NCBI RefSeq assembly: GCF_020181035.1
Contig: NZ_JAIQYY010000003.1
Coordinates: forward strand, 214,885-278,884
Source: Streptomyces sp. CoH27
Lineage (GTDB): Bacteria > Actinomycetota > Actinomycetes > Streptomycetales > Streptomycetaceae
Direction: 5' to 3'
DNA length: 64,000 nucleotides
Below, piece by piece: positions 896 to 8,457 of the stretch. The translations under genes were made by a program, and so were the position numbers. The notes beneath the pieces were generated by a model. The model did not search any database and had not been told where the DNA came from. It was given only the letters and a program-made list of their open reading frames with translations. The stretch's first letter is position 1; each line of letters begins with the position of its first letter.

Positions 896-2101
896 ATGAC
901 CAGTCCCGCACACATCGCCATGTTCTCCATCGCCCAGCACGGCCACGTGAACCCCAGCCTGGAGGTGATCCGTGAGCTCGTCGCCCGGGGACACCGGGTC
1001 ACGTACGCGATCCCGCCGGTGTTCGCCGAGAAGGTGGCCGAGACCGGCGCGCGACCCGTGCCGTACACCTCGACGCTGCCCGGCCCCGGCGCCGACCCGG
1101 AAGCGTGGGGGACCACCCTCCTGGACAACGTCGAGCCGTTCCTGGCCGACGCCATCCAGGCGCTTCCGCAGCTCGCCGAGGCCTACGACGGCGACGAGCC
1201 CGACCTCGTGCTGCACGACATCGCCTCCTACCCGGCCCGCGTCCTCGCCCACCGCTGGGGCGCTCCGGCGATCTCCCTCTCACCGAATCTGGTCGCCTGG
1301 GAGGGGTACGAGGAGGAGGTCGCCGAGCCGATGTGGGCCGAGCCGAGGAAGACCGCGCGCGGGCAGGCGTACTACGCCCGGTTCGAGGCATGGCTGGCGG
1401 AGAACGGGATCACTCAGCATCCCGACCCGTTCGCCGGCCGCCCGAGCCGCTCGATCGTCCTCATCCCCAAGGCCCTCCAGCCGCACGCCGACCGGGTCGA
1501 CGAACGGGTGTACAGCTTCGTCGGCCCCTGCCAGGGTGACCGTGCCGAACAGGGCGACTGGCAGCGCCCGGCCGGCGCCGACAAGGTCGTGCTGGTGTCC
1601 CTGGGCTCGGCCTTCACCAAACAGCCCGCCTTCTACCGCGCGTGCGTCCGCGCCTTCGGCGACCTGCCCGGCTGGCACCTGGTCCTCCAGGCCGGCCGCC
1701 ATGTGTCCGCCGCCGACCTGGGCGACGTACCGGCCAACGTCGAAGTGCACAGCTGGGTACCGCAGTTGGCGATCCTCAAAGAGGCCGACCTGTTCGTCAC
1801 GCACGCGGGCGCCGGCGGCAGCCAGGAGGGCCTCGCCACCGGCACGCCGATGATCGCCGTACCGCAGGCAGCGGACCAGTTCGGCAACGCCGACATGTTG
1901 GTGTCTCTCGGCGTCGCCCGGCGGCTGGACACCGAGGAGGCCACCGCCGACCGTCTCCGCGAGGCCGCCCTCGCCCTGGTGGACGACCCCGAGGTGGGCC
2001 GACGCCTGAAGTCCCTCCAGGCCGAGACGGCCCAGGAGGGCGGCACCCGCCGGGCGGCCGACCTCATCGAGGCCGAGCTGCACCGACTCGGCCGCGCGTG
2101 A
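896..2101 (+). CDS. macrolide-family glycosyltransferase (MGT, OleD-like, GT1)
   Basis: A 401-residue GT-B fold enzyme expected to transfer a sugar from a UDP-sugar to macrolides, flavonoids or similar acceptors in the cytoplasm; the OleD/MgtA relatives inactivate the host's own antibiotics. The N-terminus has [11 protein letters not shown], with the presumed catalytic His17. The C-terminal donor-binding signature includes [20 protein letters not shown] and [13 protein letters not shown], followed by DQFGNA. Length matches the family. The ATG at 896 was chosen because homology begins there and the -10 box lies 7 nt upstream; the long upstream extension in this frame is antisense to the phosphotransferase. 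The gene ends 20 bp from the convergent caspase gene, with no clear terminator between. Confidence 0.92.
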
Positions 2102-2121
2102 GGAGGGCCGGCGGATCCCGG

Positions 2122-5100
2122 TCAGCGGTGGCCCGGCAGCACCGGCGGCCCGTACTGGGAGCGCACCACCAGGGAGAGCAGCCCGGTGACGGAGGGCGGC
2201 AGGACCGGGGCGACGAAGGCCGGGTTGGACTCGTCCATCCTGGCCTCCGGATGGTCCCACTCGTACAGGAGCGCGGTCCGCAGCTCCTCCGCCGTGTCGT
2301 CCTCCCGAGGAGCGCCCCGGTAGAGGGCGAACATCTCCCGGGCCCGTTCGAGATTGCCGCCGTGCAGGGCGATGAGCGACACCAGCCAGGTCTTGCCCTC
2401 GTGCGGCTTGGGGCGGGGGCTGTTCGGGATGCCTTCGGGGAAGGAGTCCAGCGCCGCCTGCGCCCGTACCGGGTCGCCGGCCCCCAGCCAGCCGATGGCC
2501 TCGTAGAGCGCGAGGTTGATGACTTTCGGGTGGGCCGGCCGGTAACGCTGTGCGGTCCGGGCCGAGTCCAGCCACTGCCCGCGGCGCTGCAGGAGCAGCA
2601 CCTCCGCGAGGTAGGCCTGCGCGGTCAGGGCCGGGTTCTCCCCGAGCCACCGGGCCGTTCGCACCAACGGTTCCTCGGTCGGTTCGGCGGCCGCGTACGG
2701 GACGGCGTGATCGGCGAGCCGGTATGCGTCCTTGTACTTCACCTGCTCGCACCCCTCGCGGAGCGTCTCCAGCGCCTGCGGCACGCGGCCGAGCTGGACC
2801 TCGCACTTGGCGATCTCGTCGTAGATGGCGAACTTCTGCTCCCTGACCTTCTTGAGCGCGATCCGGCCCTCGCGCACGGTGGCTTCGGGGCCCTCCACGT
2901 CCCGCACCAGCTTCAGCAGCAGGCTCCACGGGTACATCTCGGAGCGCCCCCGTGTCGCCTCGCGCGCGTGGACCAGTGCCTTCTTCAGATCACCGGGTGC
3001 GTCGCGCAGCCGTAGCAGCATGGCCAGATGATGGTGGGTGTACGGCGAGCCGCCGTCGGTGAGATAGGCCTCCATCAGCTCGATACGGGCACTCAGCTCC
3101 GCCGGGGACTCGGGCAGGGAGTGGTGGTAGCGCCCCCTGCCGTACCTCCGCTCCAGGTAGCCGCCGATCGTCCGCGCCATGCGGGCCAGCTCGTCGTCCA
3201 GCTTCCCCTCGGAGAAGTGCAGCCGGGCCGCCGACAGGGCGAGGGCCAGCCGGTGGTCGCCGGACCTCGACGGGTCCTGCGCGTAGAGCGGGCGGGCGTA
3301 CCAGAGTCCGGCGCGGCGATGGGCGGCCTTCCAGGCCTTCTCGTCCTCGCGCATGCGGACGCAGACGACCTCGCGCACGGCGGGGTGCACCTGGAAGTGG
3401 GTGCTACGGGTGTGCGTCGTCTCGTTGTCGACCGTACGGACCTGGAGCAGGAACCGCTTCTGGAGCTGTTTGCGCAGCTCGGAGAAGTCGCCGAGGTCCC
3501 GGGTCATCGCCTTCACCAGGTCCTGGCCGGCCCAGTCCGCGAGCACCGACAGATTGCGCAGTGCGGCCCGGGCCGACGGCGTGAGCCGCTCGGTCGCCTT
3601 GGCGACCAGCTCCTTCTCGATCGTCTCGACCAGACTGAGGTCGTACGGTGCCTGGGGCACCTCGCTGGGCGGTCCCAGCAGCTCCTGCAGCGTCCAGTCG
3701 TACGGGCCCACCAGGCTGTGCAGCAGGCGCAGCACGAACGGGTTGCGGCCCAGCCGCTCCACGACCTCCTCGCGCCGCTCCGGCGGGAACCACTCCTCCG
3801 CCTCGTCCCGCTCCCGGGTGCCGACGAGGATCCGCACGGCGTCCTCGACCGGAGGCGGTGGCAGCTCCACGGGGCTGAAGTCCTGGGCCCAGACCGGGTC
3901 GGCCTTCTGGTTGGACACCAGCCAGAGACAGCCGTCCCCGTGCTGCCCCGGCGCCACGACGGTCTTCAGATCGTCCGCGATCGGCTGCACCGGGCGGCCG
4001 CGCTCGTCCAGCAGCCGCTGGAACTCGTCGAAGACCACCAGCACCCCGCGGTTCAGCAGCGTGGTCAGTGCCCGGTCGAGCCGCCGTTCCGGCGCGAGGG
4101 TGTCCGCCAGCTCGTAGTGGCCCGTGTGTTCCAACTGCTCGTGCAGCCGCGCGAGAAGCTCCTTGACGGCGTCGACGGGATGTTCCGGCACGTCGACGAG
4201 CACGGTGGTGCGGCCGTGCATCAGCCGGGCCTCGTCCATCAGGGGGCGTACGACCCGGTCGGTCTTGCCCACCCCCGAGAAGCCGTGCAGCAGGGCCGCG
4301 CTCCGGCGCTGCCTCGTCCAGCGCTCCCACAGCTGGAGCGCGGCCGTGCGGCGCTGCTCCCCGTCGATGCCCTGCAACAGGGGCGGTTCGGCGTCGGTGA
4401 AGAGAGGGCCGGCGCCGGACTGCCGGGCCGCACTGAGCGGTGTGGCCGGCGTGGCGGGCCGGGGTGGGGGTGCGGCGGCCGGCAGGGCCAGGAACGGGGG
4501 GACGTCACCGTTCAGGCCCATGGGATGCCAGTTGATGCGCTGGTAGCCGGGCCGGTTCTCGCTGGACTGCATCTGCTGCACAAGCCTGCCCAGGGGCAGC
4601 ACACCGCCGGCGCCGGCGAGGGCGTCCACGGCCTCCCGTAGCAGGGCCGGAAAGGCCCCGGACTCGGCGGACTCGTTCTTCTGCGCGGAGGAGAGAACGA
4701 CGAAGCCCGATTCGGTGTCCTCCGCACCCCAGTCGAGCGCCATCTGCCCTACGGCGGAGGCAGCGACCTGGTCTCCGCCCCGGCCGGAGTAACAGGTGTC
4801 CAGGATGAGCAGGAATCGCCGTACCGGGGTTTCGAGCAGTGCGGCTCTGGCCAGGTCGTCGGTCGGCAGGGCGGCGGCGAGATCCGTGGGCCGGTATTCC
4901 GAGGTGAGCAGGACGTGCCTGTTGTTGATCTCGATGACCTCGCCGTGGGCGGCGATGTACAGGACCACGAGATCGTCGGGTCTGCGATCGGGGGAGGCGC
5001 AGAATTCCCGCACGGCCTGCGTGAGCTGGACGGCGGTGGGGTTCAGGCCGAGGGTCGTGACGTGCTCGTAGCCGAAGCGTTCTGTGAAGAGTTCGATGAC

Positions 5101-5208
5101 GTCGTCGCGGGCCTGCGCCAGTTCGGGGCGGTCGAGTTGTGGGTCGTTGTGATAGCGCGGCACCGCCGTCGCGAGCAGGTACCGGCGTGCGCCGTCCTCA
5201 GCGGGCAT
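2122..5208 (-). CDS. caspase-like protease fused to STAND-type NTPase and TPR-like helical repeats
   Basis: A 1028-residue multidomain protein. Residues 8-240 form a peptidase C14 (caspase-like) domain: the catalytic pair is His88 in VLYIAAHGE and Cys139 in LILDTCYSGRGG. A Pro/Ala-rich linker (about 240-265) leads to a P-loop NTPase with Walker A HGFSGVGKT (308-316) and Walker B VLVVFDEFQ (about 389-397), then a winged-helix-like segment. From about residue 640 to the end it is helical and TPR-like, probably the sensor. This architecture is typical of predicted bacterial conflict or regulated-death proteins, in which ligand sensing activates the protease. The start overlaps the hydrolase stop by 11 nt, so the two are translationally coupled. 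The target is unknown. Confidence 0.88.
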   Translation of the reverse strand: MPAEDGARRYLLATAVPRYHNDPQLDRPELAQARDDVIELFTERFGYEHVTTLGLNPTAVQLTQAVREFCASPDRRPDDLVVLYIAAHGEVIEINNRHVLLTSEYRPTDLAAALPTDDLARAALLETPVRRFLLILDTCYSGRGGDQVAASAVGQMALDWGAEDTESGFVVLSSAQKNESAESGAFPALLREAVDALAGAGGVLPLGRLVQQMQSSENRPGYQRINWHPMGLNGDVPPFLALPAAAPPPRPATPATPLSAARQSGAGPLFTDAEPPLLQGIDGEQRRTAALQLWERWTRQRRSAALLHGFSGVGKTDRVVRPLMDEARLMHGRTTVLVDVPEHPVDAVKELLARLHEQLEHTGHYELADTLAPERRLDRALTTLLNRGVLVVFDEFQRLLDERGRPVQPIADDLKTVVAPGQHGDGCLWLVSNQKADPVWAQDFSPVELPPPPVEDAVRILVGTRERDEAEEWFPPERREEVVERLGRNPFVLRLLHSLVGPYDWTLQELLGPPSEVPQAPYDLSLVETIEKELVAKATERLTPSARAALRNLSVLADWAGQDLVKAMTRDLGDFSELRKQLQKRFLLQVRTVDNETTHTRSTHFQVHPAVREVVCVRMREDEKAWKAAHRRAGLWYARPLYAQDPSRSGDHRLALALSAARLHFSEGKLDDELARMARTIGGYLERRYGRGRYHHSLPESPAELSARIELMEAYLTDGGSPYTHHHLAMLLRLRDAPGDLKKALVHAREATRGRSEMYPWSLLLKLVRDVEGPEATVREGRIALKKVREQKFAIYDEIAKCEVQLGRVPQALETLREGCEQVKYKDAYRLADHAVPYAAAEPTEEPLVRTARWLGENPALTAQAYLAEVLLLQRRGQWLDSARTAQRYRPAHPKVINLALYEAIGWLGAGDPVRAQAALDSFPEGIPNSPRPKPHEGKTWLVSLIALHGGNLERAREMFALYRGAPREDDTAEELRTALLYEWDHPEARMDESNPAFVAPVLPPSVTGLLSLVVRSQYGPPVLPGHR

Positions 5209-6052
5209 CCAGCCCTCCCCTGATCGCCTTGCCGGTGAGCCGGTCGGTCAGATATGCGGTGGCGTCGTGGGCGTGCGCGCCGTTGTGCACGATCGCCGAG
5301 GTCATCCGTTCCCCGAACCGCGGCCGGAGATCCTTCACGAGGGCGACGATGTCACCCTCGTCGGCGATGTTCGTCCAGGCCAGCGCCGGGCCGCCGGGCC
5401 AGGCACCGGTCGGTGCCGGCGCGGGCGACAGCCGGTCGAAGACCATCCGCATCCCGAGCGGCGAGCCCAGCGTCACCAGGGCCCGCACCCCGTGCCCGTC
5501 CAGCGCACACAGCGCCTCGTAGGCCACGACCGAGCCCAGGGAGTGCGCCACGACCACCCGGGTGTCGGCGCCGATCGCGTCGGTCACCCGCTGCCGGGCC
5601 TCCCGGCGCACCTCGGGATCCAGCAGATATCGGGTGGTCTGCTTCAGGTCGGACACCAGCAGCCGCAGGGTGAGGCCGGAGAAGAACCGGGACGCCGACA
5701 ATGCCCGCAGCGCGGTTTGCACCGAACGCGGCGTCCGGGCCAGGGTGTTGGCGTCCGGCGGCACGACCCTGTTGTCCACCGCGGCCGCGGCCTCCCACCA
5801 CGCGTACAGCAGCTCGGTCTCCGGCCCCTCAGCCACGTCGGCCGCCGTGTACAGCGGATCTCCGACGGCGAGGGTGCGGCCGGGCGGGCGGAACAGGTCG
5901 CCGTAGAAGGCCATGGACAGATCGCCGGGACCGAGTTCGGGACCGTCGGCCCGGCGCAGCCCGTCCAGCAGCGCCGGCCGCCAGTCCTTCAGCAGGCCGT
6001 CCTCGCCCAGCAGTTGCTTGCCCACCCCGTGCACGGCGACCACGGATGCCAT
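5198..6052 (-). CDS. alpha/beta hydrolase, lipase/esterase-like, paired with caspase
   Basis: A 284-residue alpha/beta hydrolase. Its N-terminal VVAVHGVGKQ is an oxyanion-type strand-loop, and the nucleophile elbow is VVVAHSLGS (Ser171). A late His (VHNGAHAHDA) may complete the triad. No signal peptide or membrane segment is seen, so it should act in the cytoplasm or on the inner membrane face. It is the first gene of a two-gene operon and its stop overlaps the caspase start. A good ribosome site (GGAGG) precedes the ATG at 6052. PGAP1/lipase-like hydrolases are common near conflict NTPases; phospholipid hydrolysis as an effector activity is inference. It could also be an ordinary esterase. 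Confidence 0.8.
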   Translation of the reverse strand: MASVVAVHGVGKQLLGEDGLLKDWRPALLDGLRRADGPELGPGDLSMAFYGDLFRPPGRTLAVGDPLYTAADVAEGPETELLYAWWEAAAAVDNRVVPPDANTLARTPRSVQTALRALSASRFFSGLTLRLLVSDLKQTTRYLLDPEVRREARQRVTDAIGADTRVVVAHSLGSVVAYEALCALDGHGVRALVTLGSPLGMRMVFDRLSPAPAPTGAWPGGPALAWTNIADEGDIVALVKDLRPRFGERMTSAIVHNGAHAHDATAYLTDRLTGKAIRGGLDAR

Positions 6053-6164
6053 CCGTGTCCTCCTTCATCACCAGACAGCCGAAATGTCGATCGGCCCACT
6101 TTAGATGAACCCGCTTGTCTCTTCCCGCAGTTCACCGGTGGAGCTCCGGCAACGACACGAAGAG

Positions 6165-6200
6165 AGGGCCCGTTGGTTCCCCCGGAGACCAACGGACCCT
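6165..6200. terminator. strong hairpin terminator
   Basis: The 13-bp arms AGGGCCCGTTGGT (6165-6177) and ACCAACGGACCCT (6188-6200) pair with one mismatch around a 10-nt loop. It lies just downstream of the MMPL gene and upstream of the hydrolase-caspase operon, so it should insulate that operon from read-through. There is no U-tract, as is usual in Streptomyces. Confidence 0.8.
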
Positions 6201-6216
6201 CATACGGGTGGAAGCG

Positions 6217-8457
6217 TCAGACCCGCACCGTCTCACCCTCGTCCGGCACCGCCGGCGCGGCCGGCTCCGGCGCCTCGTCGTGCGTGAGGTCGGGCAGCCG
6301 GTGCAGCCACTTCGGCAGATACCAGTTGCGCTCGCCGAGCAGGGCCATCACGGCCGGCAGCAGCACCCCGCGGATCACCGTCGCGTCGATGAGGACCGCC
6401 GCGGCCAGGCCCACACCCATCTGCTTCATCGACTGCATGGACAGCGTGCCGAAGATCGCGAACACGGCGACCATGATGACCGCGGCGCTGGTGACGACAC
6501 CCGCGGTGGTCACCACGCCGTGCCGGATCGCCTCCCGCGTCTGAAGTCCCCTGGCCCGTGCCTCGCGGATCCGGGAGACGACGAACACGTGGTAGTCCAT
6601 CGAGAGCCCGAACAGGATCACGAAGAGGAACAGCGGCAGCCAGGTCACGATCGCGCCGACCCCCTCCGCGCCCACCAGCGAGGCACCCCAGCCGTGCTGG
6701 AAGACGGCGACGAGGATGCCGTAGGCGGCGCACACCGACAGCAGGTTGAGCACGATCGACGTGATCGCGACGGTCAGCGAGCGGAACGACAGCAGCATCA
6801 GCAGGAAGGCGAAGACGACCACGAACACGAAGACCGGGACGACGGAGCCGAGCAACTGGTCGTTGAAGTCGTGGTTGCCGGCGACCTGTCCGGTGACCGG
6901 CGCCTGCAGGCCGGGCACCTTGCCGAGCGTGGCGGGCCGCACCTCGTCGCGCAGCTTCTCCAGGCTCTTGACCGCCTGGTCCATGTCGGAGCCGCCGACC
7001 AGCGGTACGGAGACCACGGCGATGTTCTGCGCGTCGTGCAGCCGGATGTCGACCGGGCCGCGCGAGGCGCCCGAGGCGATCGCCCGCTGCTTGAAGTCGG
7101 CCAGCGCCTGCCGTACCTCGGGCGCGTTGATGTCCTTGGCCTTGACCATGACCTGGGCCGGCTCGCTGCCGCCGGGGAAGGCGTCGTTGACCCGGTTGTA
7201 GGTCTGCACGATCGGCAGTGACGTGCCGAACTCCTGGTCCAGGGTGAGCTGCTGGGTCTTCATGCCGAGCGCGGGCGCGGCGATCGCCAGCAGCGCGCCG
7301 GCCGCCACGGCGACGGAGACCAGCGGCCTGGCCAGGACGACCCGCAGCACGGCCGTCCAGAACCGGCTCTCCGAGGCGCCCTTGCGGCGTCGGCTCAGGA
7401 ACGGGAGGCGGCCCTTCTCGACGCGCTCGCCGAGCAGCGACAGCAGCGCGGGCAGCACGGTCACCGAGCCGACCATGGCGACCGCCACCACCATCAGCGA
7501 GGCCAGACCCATCGCCTCGAACTCGGCGAGCCCGGTGAACAGCATGCCCGCCATGGCCACGCACACCGTGACCCCGGAGACGATGACCGCCCGTCCGCTG
7601 GTGGCGGCGGCGATCCTCAGGGCGGTGCCGGCGTCGCGCCCGGCGGCCCGCTCCTCGCGCTCCCGGCGCAGATAGAACAGGCAGTAGTCGACCCCGACGG
7701 CCATGCCGACCAGCAGCATCACGGAGTTGGCGGTGTCGCTCATCGGCTGCAGATGGCTGACGACGCCCATCAGACCCATCGTCGCCATGATCGCCGTGAT
7801 CGCGAGGGCCACCGGCAGCAGCGCGGCCACCAGCGCGCCGAACGCGATCAGCAGGATGCCGAGGGCCACCGGCACCGCCGAGTACTCGGCCTGCTTGAAG
7901 TCGTCGCCGAAGGCGTCCTTGTACTGCTTCTGCATGCTGGCGCCGCCGATCTCCTCGATCCGCAGGCCGCTGTGCTGCTTCTGCACCCCGGCGACGGCGT
8001 TCAGCACCGGCTCGATCCGGTCGACGGCCGTCTTGGCGTCGCCGCGCACGTCGAACTGGACCAGCGCGCTGCGCCCGTCCCGGGAGATCGTGTGCGTGTC
8101 GTACGGCGAGGTCACCCCCGTGACCTTCCCGGTGGCCCCGACGGCCTTCACCACATCGGCGACGGCGGCCCGGAACTCGCTCCCGGTCGCCTGCTGGGCA
8201 CTGTCCTTCGACTGGATCAGGACGGTCTCGCCGGCCGGCTGCTTGATCCCCGCGTCGTCGATGATCCGCGCGGCGGTGTGCGTCTCGCCGCTCAGCTGGT
8301 CGCCCTCGTTCACGTCGACCCGGCCCGCCGCCGAGCCGAGTCCCAGCGCCAGGACGACGAACAGCACCCATATGCCGACGGCCGCCCAGCGGTGCCGGGC
8401 GCTCCAGCCGCCCGCGCGGGCGGCCAGCCCCCGCGCCCGCACCTGTGTGTTCCCCAT
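6217..8457 (-). CDS. MMPL-family transporter (RND superfamily)
   Basis: A 746-residue polytopic membrane protein with the RND duplication: one TM, a large extracytoplasmic domain (about 50-180), five TMs, then the same again. Each half carries the proton-relay Asp-Tyr pair expected of MmpL proteins (GVDYCLFYLRRERE and SMDYHVFVVSRIREA). Such proteins export lipids or other hydrophobic molecules using the proton gradient. The N-terminal basic stretch before the first TM and the ATG at 8457 fit the family. The gene is monocistronic, closed by the 6165-6200 hairpin. The substrate is unknown; neighbours give no clue. Confidence 0.92.
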   Translation of the reverse strand: MGNTQVRARGLAARAGGWSARHRWAAVGIWVLFVVLALGLGSAAGRVDVNEGDQLSGETHTAARIIDDAGIKQPAGETVLIQSKDSAQQATGSEFRAAVADVVKAVGATGKVTGVTSPYDTHTISRDGRSALVQFDVRGDAKTAVDRIEPVLNAVAGVQKQHSGLRIEEIGGASMQKQYKDAFGDDFKQAEYSAVPVALGILLIAFGALVAALLPVALAITAIMATMGLMGVVSHLQPMSDTANSVMLLVGMAVGVDYCLFYLRREREERAAGRDAGTALRIAAATSGRAVIVSGVTVCVAMAGMLFTGLAEFEAMGLASLMVVAVAMVGSVTVLPALLSLLGERVEKGRLPFLSRRRKGASESRFWTAVLRVVLARPLVSVAVAAGALLAIAAPALGMKTQQLTLDQEFGTSLPIVQTYNRVNDAFPGGSEPAQVMVKAKDINAPEVRQALADFKQRAIASGASRGPVDIRLHDAQNIAVVSVPLVGGSDMDQAVKSLEKLRDEVRPATLGKVPGLQAPVTGQVAGNHDFNDQLLGSVVPVFVFVVVFAFLLMLLSFRSLTVAITSIVLNLLSVCAAYGILVAVFQHGWGASLVGAEGVGAIVTWLPLFLFVILFGLSMDYHVFVVSRIREARARGLQTREAIRHGVVTTAGVVTSAAVIMVAVFAIFGTLSMQSMKQMGVGLAAAVLIDATVIRGVLLPAVMALLGERNWYLPKWLHRLPDLTHDEAPEPAAPAVPDEGETVRV

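What the first reader, a model, noticed from the sequence alone, without database searches (positions are those of the whole stretch)
2122..6052. Hydrolase plus caspase-STAND-TPR operon: candidate immunity or regulated-death system
Two coupled genes (11-nt overlap) encode a Ser171 alpha/beta hydrolase and a 1028-residue protein joining a caspase dyad (His88/Cys139), a P-loop NTPase and a TPR-like sensor. This is the layout of a sensor-switch-effector device. A lipase-like partner might be the substrate or second effector of the protease, as bacterial gasdermins are for other caspase-like proteases. The operon is insulated by a strong terminator. The exact pairing is not one I know as experimentally described.
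Basis: partly seen in the sequence, partly recalled or inferred. Interest (0 to 1): 0.8.

Follow-up and report, generated by a model that had tools for sequence, protein, structure and literature searches.

The report
Lipase–caspase cassette with swapped sensor
In this Streptomyces two overlapping genes, of a kind found side by side in most related loci examined and in several bacterial phyla, encode a predicted lipase-like enzyme and a caspase-type protease joined to a predicted Apaf-1-like switch, a pair that likely works as a sensor-triggered cell-death or anti-phage device.

Summary
In detail: two overlapping genes encode a 284-aa alpha/beta hydrolase and a 1028-aa caspase-NTPase-repeat protein. 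Hydrolase relatives have a caspase-domain gene directly beside them in 39 of 41 Streptomyces loci and 74 of 80 named loci, including two Pseudomonadota and a cyanobacterium. Both active sites are invariant in 97 of 97 non-redundant pairs. The pair is an accessory insertion: in five relatives the flanking genes are adjacent, and the 'insulating' hairpin belongs to that older junction. The commonest partner is caspase-STAND-WD40 (14 of 20 scanned). In the window's clade, hydrolase and caspase nest in that radiation, but the switch-sensor is a STAND-TPR core that elsewhere carries glycosyltransferase or nucleosidase effectors. Inferred mechanism: sensor, oligomer, metacaspase-like protease, activation of the lipase-like hydrolase. 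A caspase plus alpha/beta-hydrolase pairing was predicted for VMAP systems (Kaur 2020), so this is a new variant of a known kind. No experiment on the pair was found, and neighbouring genes show no defence-island enrichment.

The parts
5198..6052 (-). alpha/beta hydrolase gene, 284 aa, no leader peptide visible (first strand is residues 4-8); predicted lipase/thioesterase-type fold with a helical insertion at about residues 51-145
   Evidence: S171/D234/H262 invariant in 97 of 97
2122..5208 (-). caspase-STAND-TPR gene, 1028 aa
5198..5208 (-). 11-nt overlap of the two genes, suggesting translational coupling
5540..5542 (-). Ser171 codon of the hydrolase (H-S-L-G nucleophile elbow)
   Evidence: sequence; invariant 97 of 97
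5351..5353 (-). Asp234 codon, predicted triad acid
   Evidence: invariant 97 of 97
5267..5269 (-). His262 codon, predicted triad base
   Evidence: invariant 97 of 97
4480..5208 (-). caspase (C14) domain, residues 1-243
4945..4947 (-). His88 codon
   Evidence: sequence; invariant 97 of 97
4792..4794 (-). Cys139 codon, preceded by invariant Asp137
   Evidence: sequence; invariant 97 of 97
4369..4479 (-). junction between caspase module and STAND-TPR core (residues 244-280), the presumed recombination zone
   Evidence: caspase similarity to other partners ends near 243, core similarity begins near 280
3343..4368 (-). predicted STAND NTPase (NBD-HD-WHD-like), residues 281-622; P-loop at 309-316, Walker B at 390-395
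   Evidence: AAA_22; G309/G312/G314/K315/D394 invariant in 10 aligned proteins; fold
2125..3342 (-). predicted TPR-like helical repeat array, residues 623-1028
   Evidence: secondary structure and fold
6164..6201 (-). strong hairpin: ancestral convergent terminator of the flanking genes, not operon-specific

Best explanation
The two genes are a conserved two-gene module in which a caspase-type protease joined to a predicted STAND-TPR switch likely serves as a sensor-triggered executioner: the TPR array would bind a trigger (probably of phage or stress origin), the NTPase would oligomerise, the clustered caspase domains would become active, and they would then switch on the neighbouring predicted lipase-like hydrolase, leading to likely death or arrest of the cell. 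Shown here: the pair, its conserved active sites, its occurrence in several phyla, its insertion between two otherwise adjacent genes, and a different switch-sensor part in the window's clade while hydrolase and caspase stayed together. Inferred: the trigger, oligomerisation, proteolysis of the hydrolase (expected after Arg or Lys), lipid substrates and the outcome.
Against: No experiment. No strictly conserved basic residue in the lower-confidence hydrolase loops: at least one R/K in 104-110 in 86 of 97 and in 119-125 in 78 of 97. Fold rows for the hydrolase are tied among lipases, thioesterases and esterases, so the substrate is open. No defence-island enrichment. Hydrolase without an adjacent same-strand caspase gene in 2 of 41 and 6 of 80 loci. 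Outside the best hits the family is sparse: 13 of 296 genomes drawn across the phylum match the hydrolase profile at E 1e-15. The identity correlation is not corrected for species phylogeny.
Confidence: 0.5

Rival explanations
1. The hydrolase is not a substrate of the caspase: both are recruited to the oligomer as parallel enzymes, or the hydrolase restrains or resets the switch (for example by hydrolysing a lipid or ester signal), and the caspase's main substrates lie elsewhere in the cell.
For: No universally conserved cleavage site in the hydrolase; the hydrolase is predicted with high confidence around all three triad residues; one locus keeps a hydrolase with a STAND partner lacking the caspase (L120).
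Against: Tight overlap or abutment and joint evolution of hydrolase and caspase, also across a change of core.
Confidence: 0.27
2. The pair serves regulated cell death or signalling in development (mycelial lysis) and not defence against phages.
For: 77 of the 80 best named loci are from actinomycetes, most of them mycelial genera (names; life forms recalled); neighbours show no defence enrichment.
Against: Patchy accessory distribution and insertion between conserved neighbours; a changed sensor; presence on a Rhodococcus plasmid beside recombinase genes and in Methylomonas and Duganella.
Confidence: 0.15
3. It is one more member of the published VMAP-MoxR-vWA or EACC1-caspase conflict systems with nothing separate about it.
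For: Kaur et al. 2020 state that a caspase on VMAP always has a neighbouring alpha/beta-hydrolase gene; two distant hydrolase relatives lie about 9 kb from VMAP-C genes.
Against: No VMAP-C domain in the protein, and the genome's only VMAP-C gene and its two MoxR-type AAA_3 genes lie on other contigs; caspase_w_EACC1 55.5 bits against cut-off 140, and the 5' gene is a hydrolase; most scanned partners carry their own STAND and WD40 parts.
Confidence: 0.06
4. Chance neighbours without functional link.
For: A minority of relatives lack the partner.
Against: 39 of 41 and 74 of 80 linked, 0 of 20 control regions.
Confidence: 0.01

Closest known systems
Caspase plus alpha/beta-hydrolase pairing in VMAP-MoxR-vWA ternary systems (Kaur et al. 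2020, PMC7159879; passages, section 33 and part 1 of section 9 seen)
   Same: A caspase-bearing protein with a neighbouring alpha/beta-hydrolase gene, predicted to act together in conflict.
   Different: Here a free-standing two-gene operon without VMAP-C, MoxR or vWA; the caspase is fused to its own STAND-repeat switch.
canu caspase-nuclease and the protease-pronuclease pairs of Hachiman, AVAST, Lamassu, DRT (PMC12799240; passages seen)
   Same: An executioner enzyme and a protease encoded together; in the trypsin-nuclease pairs the protease is fused to the N-terminus of a defence enzyme, the nuclease gene is upstream, and the pair recurs with different cores.
   Different: There an MBL-fold nuclease as proenzyme, with experiments; here an alpha/beta hydrolase of lipase-like fold, untested.
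EACC1-caspase two-gene systems (PMC7159879 section 33, seen whole)
   Same: Two genes, 3' gene with N-terminal caspase and highly variable C-terminal parts, mostly actinobacterial.
   Different: The 5' gene here is a hydrolase, not a membrane EACC1; profile score below cut-off.
Prokaryotic metacaspase-NACHT-WD40 proteins and metacaspase operons (Asplund-Samuelsson et al. 2012, PMC3501461; passages and section 13 seen)
   Same: Same domain order as the commonest partner of this hydrolase family; 'hydrolysases' are named among the commonest enzyme types in metacaspase operons.
   Different: Section 13 does not describe a conserved hydrolase-caspase pair; the window protein has TPR, not WD40.
Apaf-1 and plant NLRs
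   Different: Caspase is on the same chain; identity over the aligned part is only 11-13%.

Membership tests
Caspase superfamily, peptidase C14 | Pfam C14 match above cut-off and His/Cys dyad | tested here: met
   35.2 bits against 21.4; H88 and C139 in 97 of 97
Metacaspase/paracaspase-like specificity | Acidic residue two before the catalytic Cys (S1 pocket role recalled); cleavage after Arg/Lys | tested here: inconclusive
   D137 in 97 of 97, aligned to the D-x-C of Metacaspase-4; a presumed second S1 acid is not conserved (position 35: D or E in 31 of 97); cleavage not tested
STAND NTPase | P-loop NTPase with NBD-HD-WHD fold followed by repeats | tested here: met
VMAP-MoxR-vWA ternary system | VMAP-C domain with MoxR and vWA genes | tested here: not met
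   no VMAP-C match in the 1028-aa protein; the genome's only VMAP-C match is on contig C37 and its AAA_3 (MoxR) matches are on C61 and C50, the window is on C28; vWA was not searched for
EACC1-caspase system | EACC1 membrane gene 5' of the caspase gene; NF047832 above cut-off | tested here: not met
   55.5 bits against 140; the 5' gene is a hydrolase
Bacterial gasdermin systems | pore-forming gasdermin substrate gene | tested here: not met
   the partner is an alpha/beta hydrolase with intact triad and lipase-type fold
Protease-activated proenzyme pair (canu-like working) | protease cleaves and activates the partner enzyme | not testable with these tools
   only architecture and joint evolution were examined
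Lipase | alpha/beta hydrolase fold, Ser-Asp-His triad, lipid ester hydrolysis | tested here: inconclusive
   fold and triad met; activity untested; thioesterases and esterases score equally

The most novel reading that the evidence does not exclude
A portable lipase-metacaspase execution cassette: bacteria swap NLR-type sensor cores (STAND-WD40, STAND-TPR) onto one constant pair, in which an Arg/Lys-specific caspase on a single-chain apoptosome switches on a cytosolic lipase that dissolves the cell's own membrane. That would be a third caspase-triggered way to kill a bacterium, beside gasdermin pores and activated nucleases.
Probability: 0.33. Interest if true: 0.85.

Novelty: new variant of a known kind. 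Interest (0 to 1): 0.6.

Why it matters
If right, bacterial caspases gain a lipase-type executioner, and the family provides a natural series in which hydrolase and caspase stay while the sensor changes. That makes the question of what each NLR-like sensor detects directly testable by comparing TPR- and WD40-type members against one phage panel. It also adds a case for the idea that effector-protease pairs, and not single domains, are what is exchanged between immune switches.

Tried and rejected
Housekeeping gene or chance neighbour: rejected by linkage counts and empty site. Insulating terminator of the operon: rejected, it is the ancestral hairpin between the flanking genes. The consensus promoter/terminator scan of 1900-6400 found no site of either kind. 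Gasdermin-like partner: rejected on fold. Asp-specific caspase site in the hydrolase: not pursued after D137 proved invariant; a conserved basic site was looked for and none was universal. Defence-island test: 102 neighbour genes from 20 of the 41 loci gave 8 member-family matches at E 1e-10, and 102 control genes (drawn at random from 201 in regions 250-300 kb away in the same genomes) gave 10, four of them IetA models that may be one gene; so no enrichment. The neighbour set alone had REase_MTase_IIG, mREase_IV and PD-T4-6 matches, one each, too few to weigh. PADLOC gives the long protein only a weak PDC-S27 match (18.1 bits), and by sequence its NTPase resembles the transposition ATPase TnsC (E 0.0009). 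Phage records: no hydrolase match. Sequence relatives of the hydrolase in the PDB: none at E 0.1; NCBIfam: none for 49 hydrolases at E 0.001. In my notebook I wrote that 18 of 20 scanned partners had WD40 and that there were 119 partners; recounted, it is 14 of 20 with a strong WD40/propeller match (two more weak, four none) and 115 partner proteins.

Selection to tell: the 40 loci beyond the window in the first set are the best hits (119 of 295 genomes had a hit; the tool scored only 8 candidates a genome). The 80 of the second set are the best of 243 relatives; 10 hydrolases are identical between the two sets. Start codons of partners were picked by script. The caspase profile used was built from the first set; the independent check is Pfam. 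The 12 distant loci were chosen because a caspase or VMAP hit lay near in several, so 9 of 12 with a caspase domain is not an unbiased rate. Rows left out before the 97: of 111 caspase domains, four with truncated partners and 10 near-duplicates.
Full report

The pair is real. Of 295 Streptomyces genomes, 119 have a hydrolase relative and 99 a match to the caspase domain, both at E 1e-5 and both lower bounds, as few candidates per genome were scored. For the window and the 40 best hydrolase loci, 39 of 41 have a long same-strand partner abutting or overlapping: 34 downstream, at -37 to +89 nt, and 5 upstream with a 4-nt overlap; all 39 have the caspase domain. Of the two exceptions, L068 has a caspase gene nearby on the other strand and L059 none. 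In the genome-contig collection, 74 of the 80 best named loci have an adjacent caspase domain: 72 by profile, and L080 and L105 by six-frame search. The six without are L092, L102 (a second hydrolase-caspase pair lies just upstream), L115, L120 (STAND partner without caspase), L134 and L136 (hydrolase matched only in part). Carriers include Methylomonas, Duganella and the cyanobacterium Moorena. Of 23 plasmid records with a hydrolase match I inspected two, of Leptolyngbya and Rhodococcus, and both have the caspase domain next door. Twenty control regions of 20 of the same genomes have no caspase match. Across the phylum the hydrolase is sparse: 13 of 296 genomes at E 1e-15.

Active sites. In 97 non-redundant pairs, hydrolase S171, D234 and H262 and caspase H88, D137 and C139 are each present in 97 of 97. 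Pfam finds PF00656 in 89 of the 97 caspase domains, CHAT in 6, Raptor_N in 1. The invariant D137, two before the Cys, aligns with the D-x-C of plant Metacaspase-4. Metacaspases cleave after Arg or Lys (PMC3501461, passage); that this Asp lines the S1 pocket is recalled. A presumed second S1 acid is not conserved. Hence a basic P1 is likely, but untested. In the hydrolase, loops in blocks of lower model confidence (61-70, 101-110, 121-130) carry at least one Arg/Lys in 86 of 97 (positions 104-110) and 78 of 97 (119-125), but no single basic position there is universal.

Accessory insertion. In 13 relatives with an MMPL gene 80-90% identical to the window's, the glycosyltransferase and MMPL genes that flank the pair face each other with 79-344 nt between them in 5 (L154, L155, L156, L157, L163). 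In L162 only the last 85 residues of the glycosyltransferase are matched, 98 nt away; in L159 and L160 it is about 1 kb away; in 5 it is not within the stretch held. None of the 29 other loci held (1.5 kb either side of the MMPL match) has the hydrolase there. The strong hairpin credited to the operon stands in these empty sites too, so it predates the insertion.

Switch and sensor differ. Of 20 other partners scanned (of 38 in the first set), 14 have a strong WD40/propeller match, 2 a weak one and 4 none. The window's STAND-TPR core is matched in only 2 of 115 partner proteins, the window's and its conspecific's; L120 gives a marginal 8.8 bits. Against L034 the window shows 77% hydrolase, 57% caspase and 21% NTPase identity, whereas L034 against L085 shows 78, 74 and 68%. 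Trees place the TPR-core hydrolases (3 rows) as one clade inside starred sets of 10, 24 and 58 rows, and the TPR-core caspases (7 rows) as one clade inside a starred set of 59 (midpoint root; not every neighbour's core was scanned, L034's is WD40). Elsewhere the same core carries an extension at its C-terminal end: of 18 core proteins, 10 have PF20706, 1 PF01048, 2 an unnamed tail of 175-179 aa, and the 5 caspase types have at most 4 residues there. So a caspase was joined to the N-terminus of a core that otherwise carries C-terminal effectors, with the hydrolase gene alongside (inferred; that P0002 and P0125 are a pair rests on the same strain name and contig length). Hydrolase and caspase identities correlate at r 0.87, hydrolase and NTPase at 0.71, caspase and NTPase at 0.84 (97 loci, 0 of 500 permutations as high in each; not corrected for species relatedness).

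Mechanism. From Apaf-1-type and STAND biology (established for those families) and from proteases that activate co-encoded proenzymes in bacteria (canu and protease-pronuclease pairs, PMC12799240, passages), I commit to: TPR array senses, NTPase oligomerises, caspase activates, hydrolase is switched on and attacks lipids or another ester. Only anatomy, linkage, conservation and module exchange are shown. Results against: no universal cleavage site, no defence-island enrichment, substrate class open.

Known work. Kaur et al. [quoted passage not shown] part 1 of section 9 read). The window's pair is not such a system: the genome's only VMAP-C match and both MoxR-type matches are on other contigs. 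Their EACC1-caspase system has the same two-gene logic with another 5' gene (section 33). Metacaspase-NACHT-WD40 was noted in 2012, and hydrolases of unstated kind among metacaspase operon neighbours. The listings of paper searches showed no experiment on a caspase-hydrolase pair; the library lacks most subscription papers. The LypABC paper, seen by passages only, has a protease/NLR lysis system without a hydrolase or lipase term in its main text.

Verdict. A real, conserved, accessory lipase-like/caspase module with an exchanged NLR-type core: a new variant of a known kind, interesting because the executioner class and the exchange of sensors are both testable.

Noticed in passing
L120 (Catenulispora MAG), partner of 1041 aa: Hydrolase kept next to a STAND protein in which no caspase domain was found: possibly a natural loss of the protease that could tell whether the hydrolase works without it.
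   Followed up: partly
L047:6684-7805 (genome G121) and L137 (Streptomyces specialis): Partner gene is only 374 aa: caspase domain plus what may be the beginning of the NTPase, so switch and sensor are missing while hydrolase and caspase remain.
   Followed up: no
L115, L122, L127, L147 (Nocardia takedensis contigs): Four hydrolase copies in one assembly; three of the partner genes run off contig ends and for the fourth no caspase was found in the stretch held, suggesting several near-repeat systems in one genome.
   Followed up: no
P0138, C-terminal 175 aa (Streptomyces sp. NPDC002499): The STAND-TPR core here ends in an unnamed tail in place of the glycosyltransferase or nucleosidase domain; possibly an adaptor domain.
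   Followed up: no
L213 and L214 (genomes G041, G069): Distant hydrolase plus caspase-WD40 genes lie about 9 kb from a VMAP-C gene, a possible bridge between this module and the published VMAP systems; VMAP-C occurs in 239 of 295 Streptomyces genomes, once in the window's own, on another contig.
   Followed up: partly
L226:1-12846 (Rhodococcus ruber plasmid pmega_1): The pair sits between recombinase genes and an IS1634 transposase, next to a PIN-domain gene and a helicase gene.
   Followed up: no
L063 and L066, gene directly upstream of the hydrolase: A membrane-like protein of about 330 aa with a very similar N-terminus precedes the pair in both genomes, perhaps a shared insertion site.
   Followed up: no
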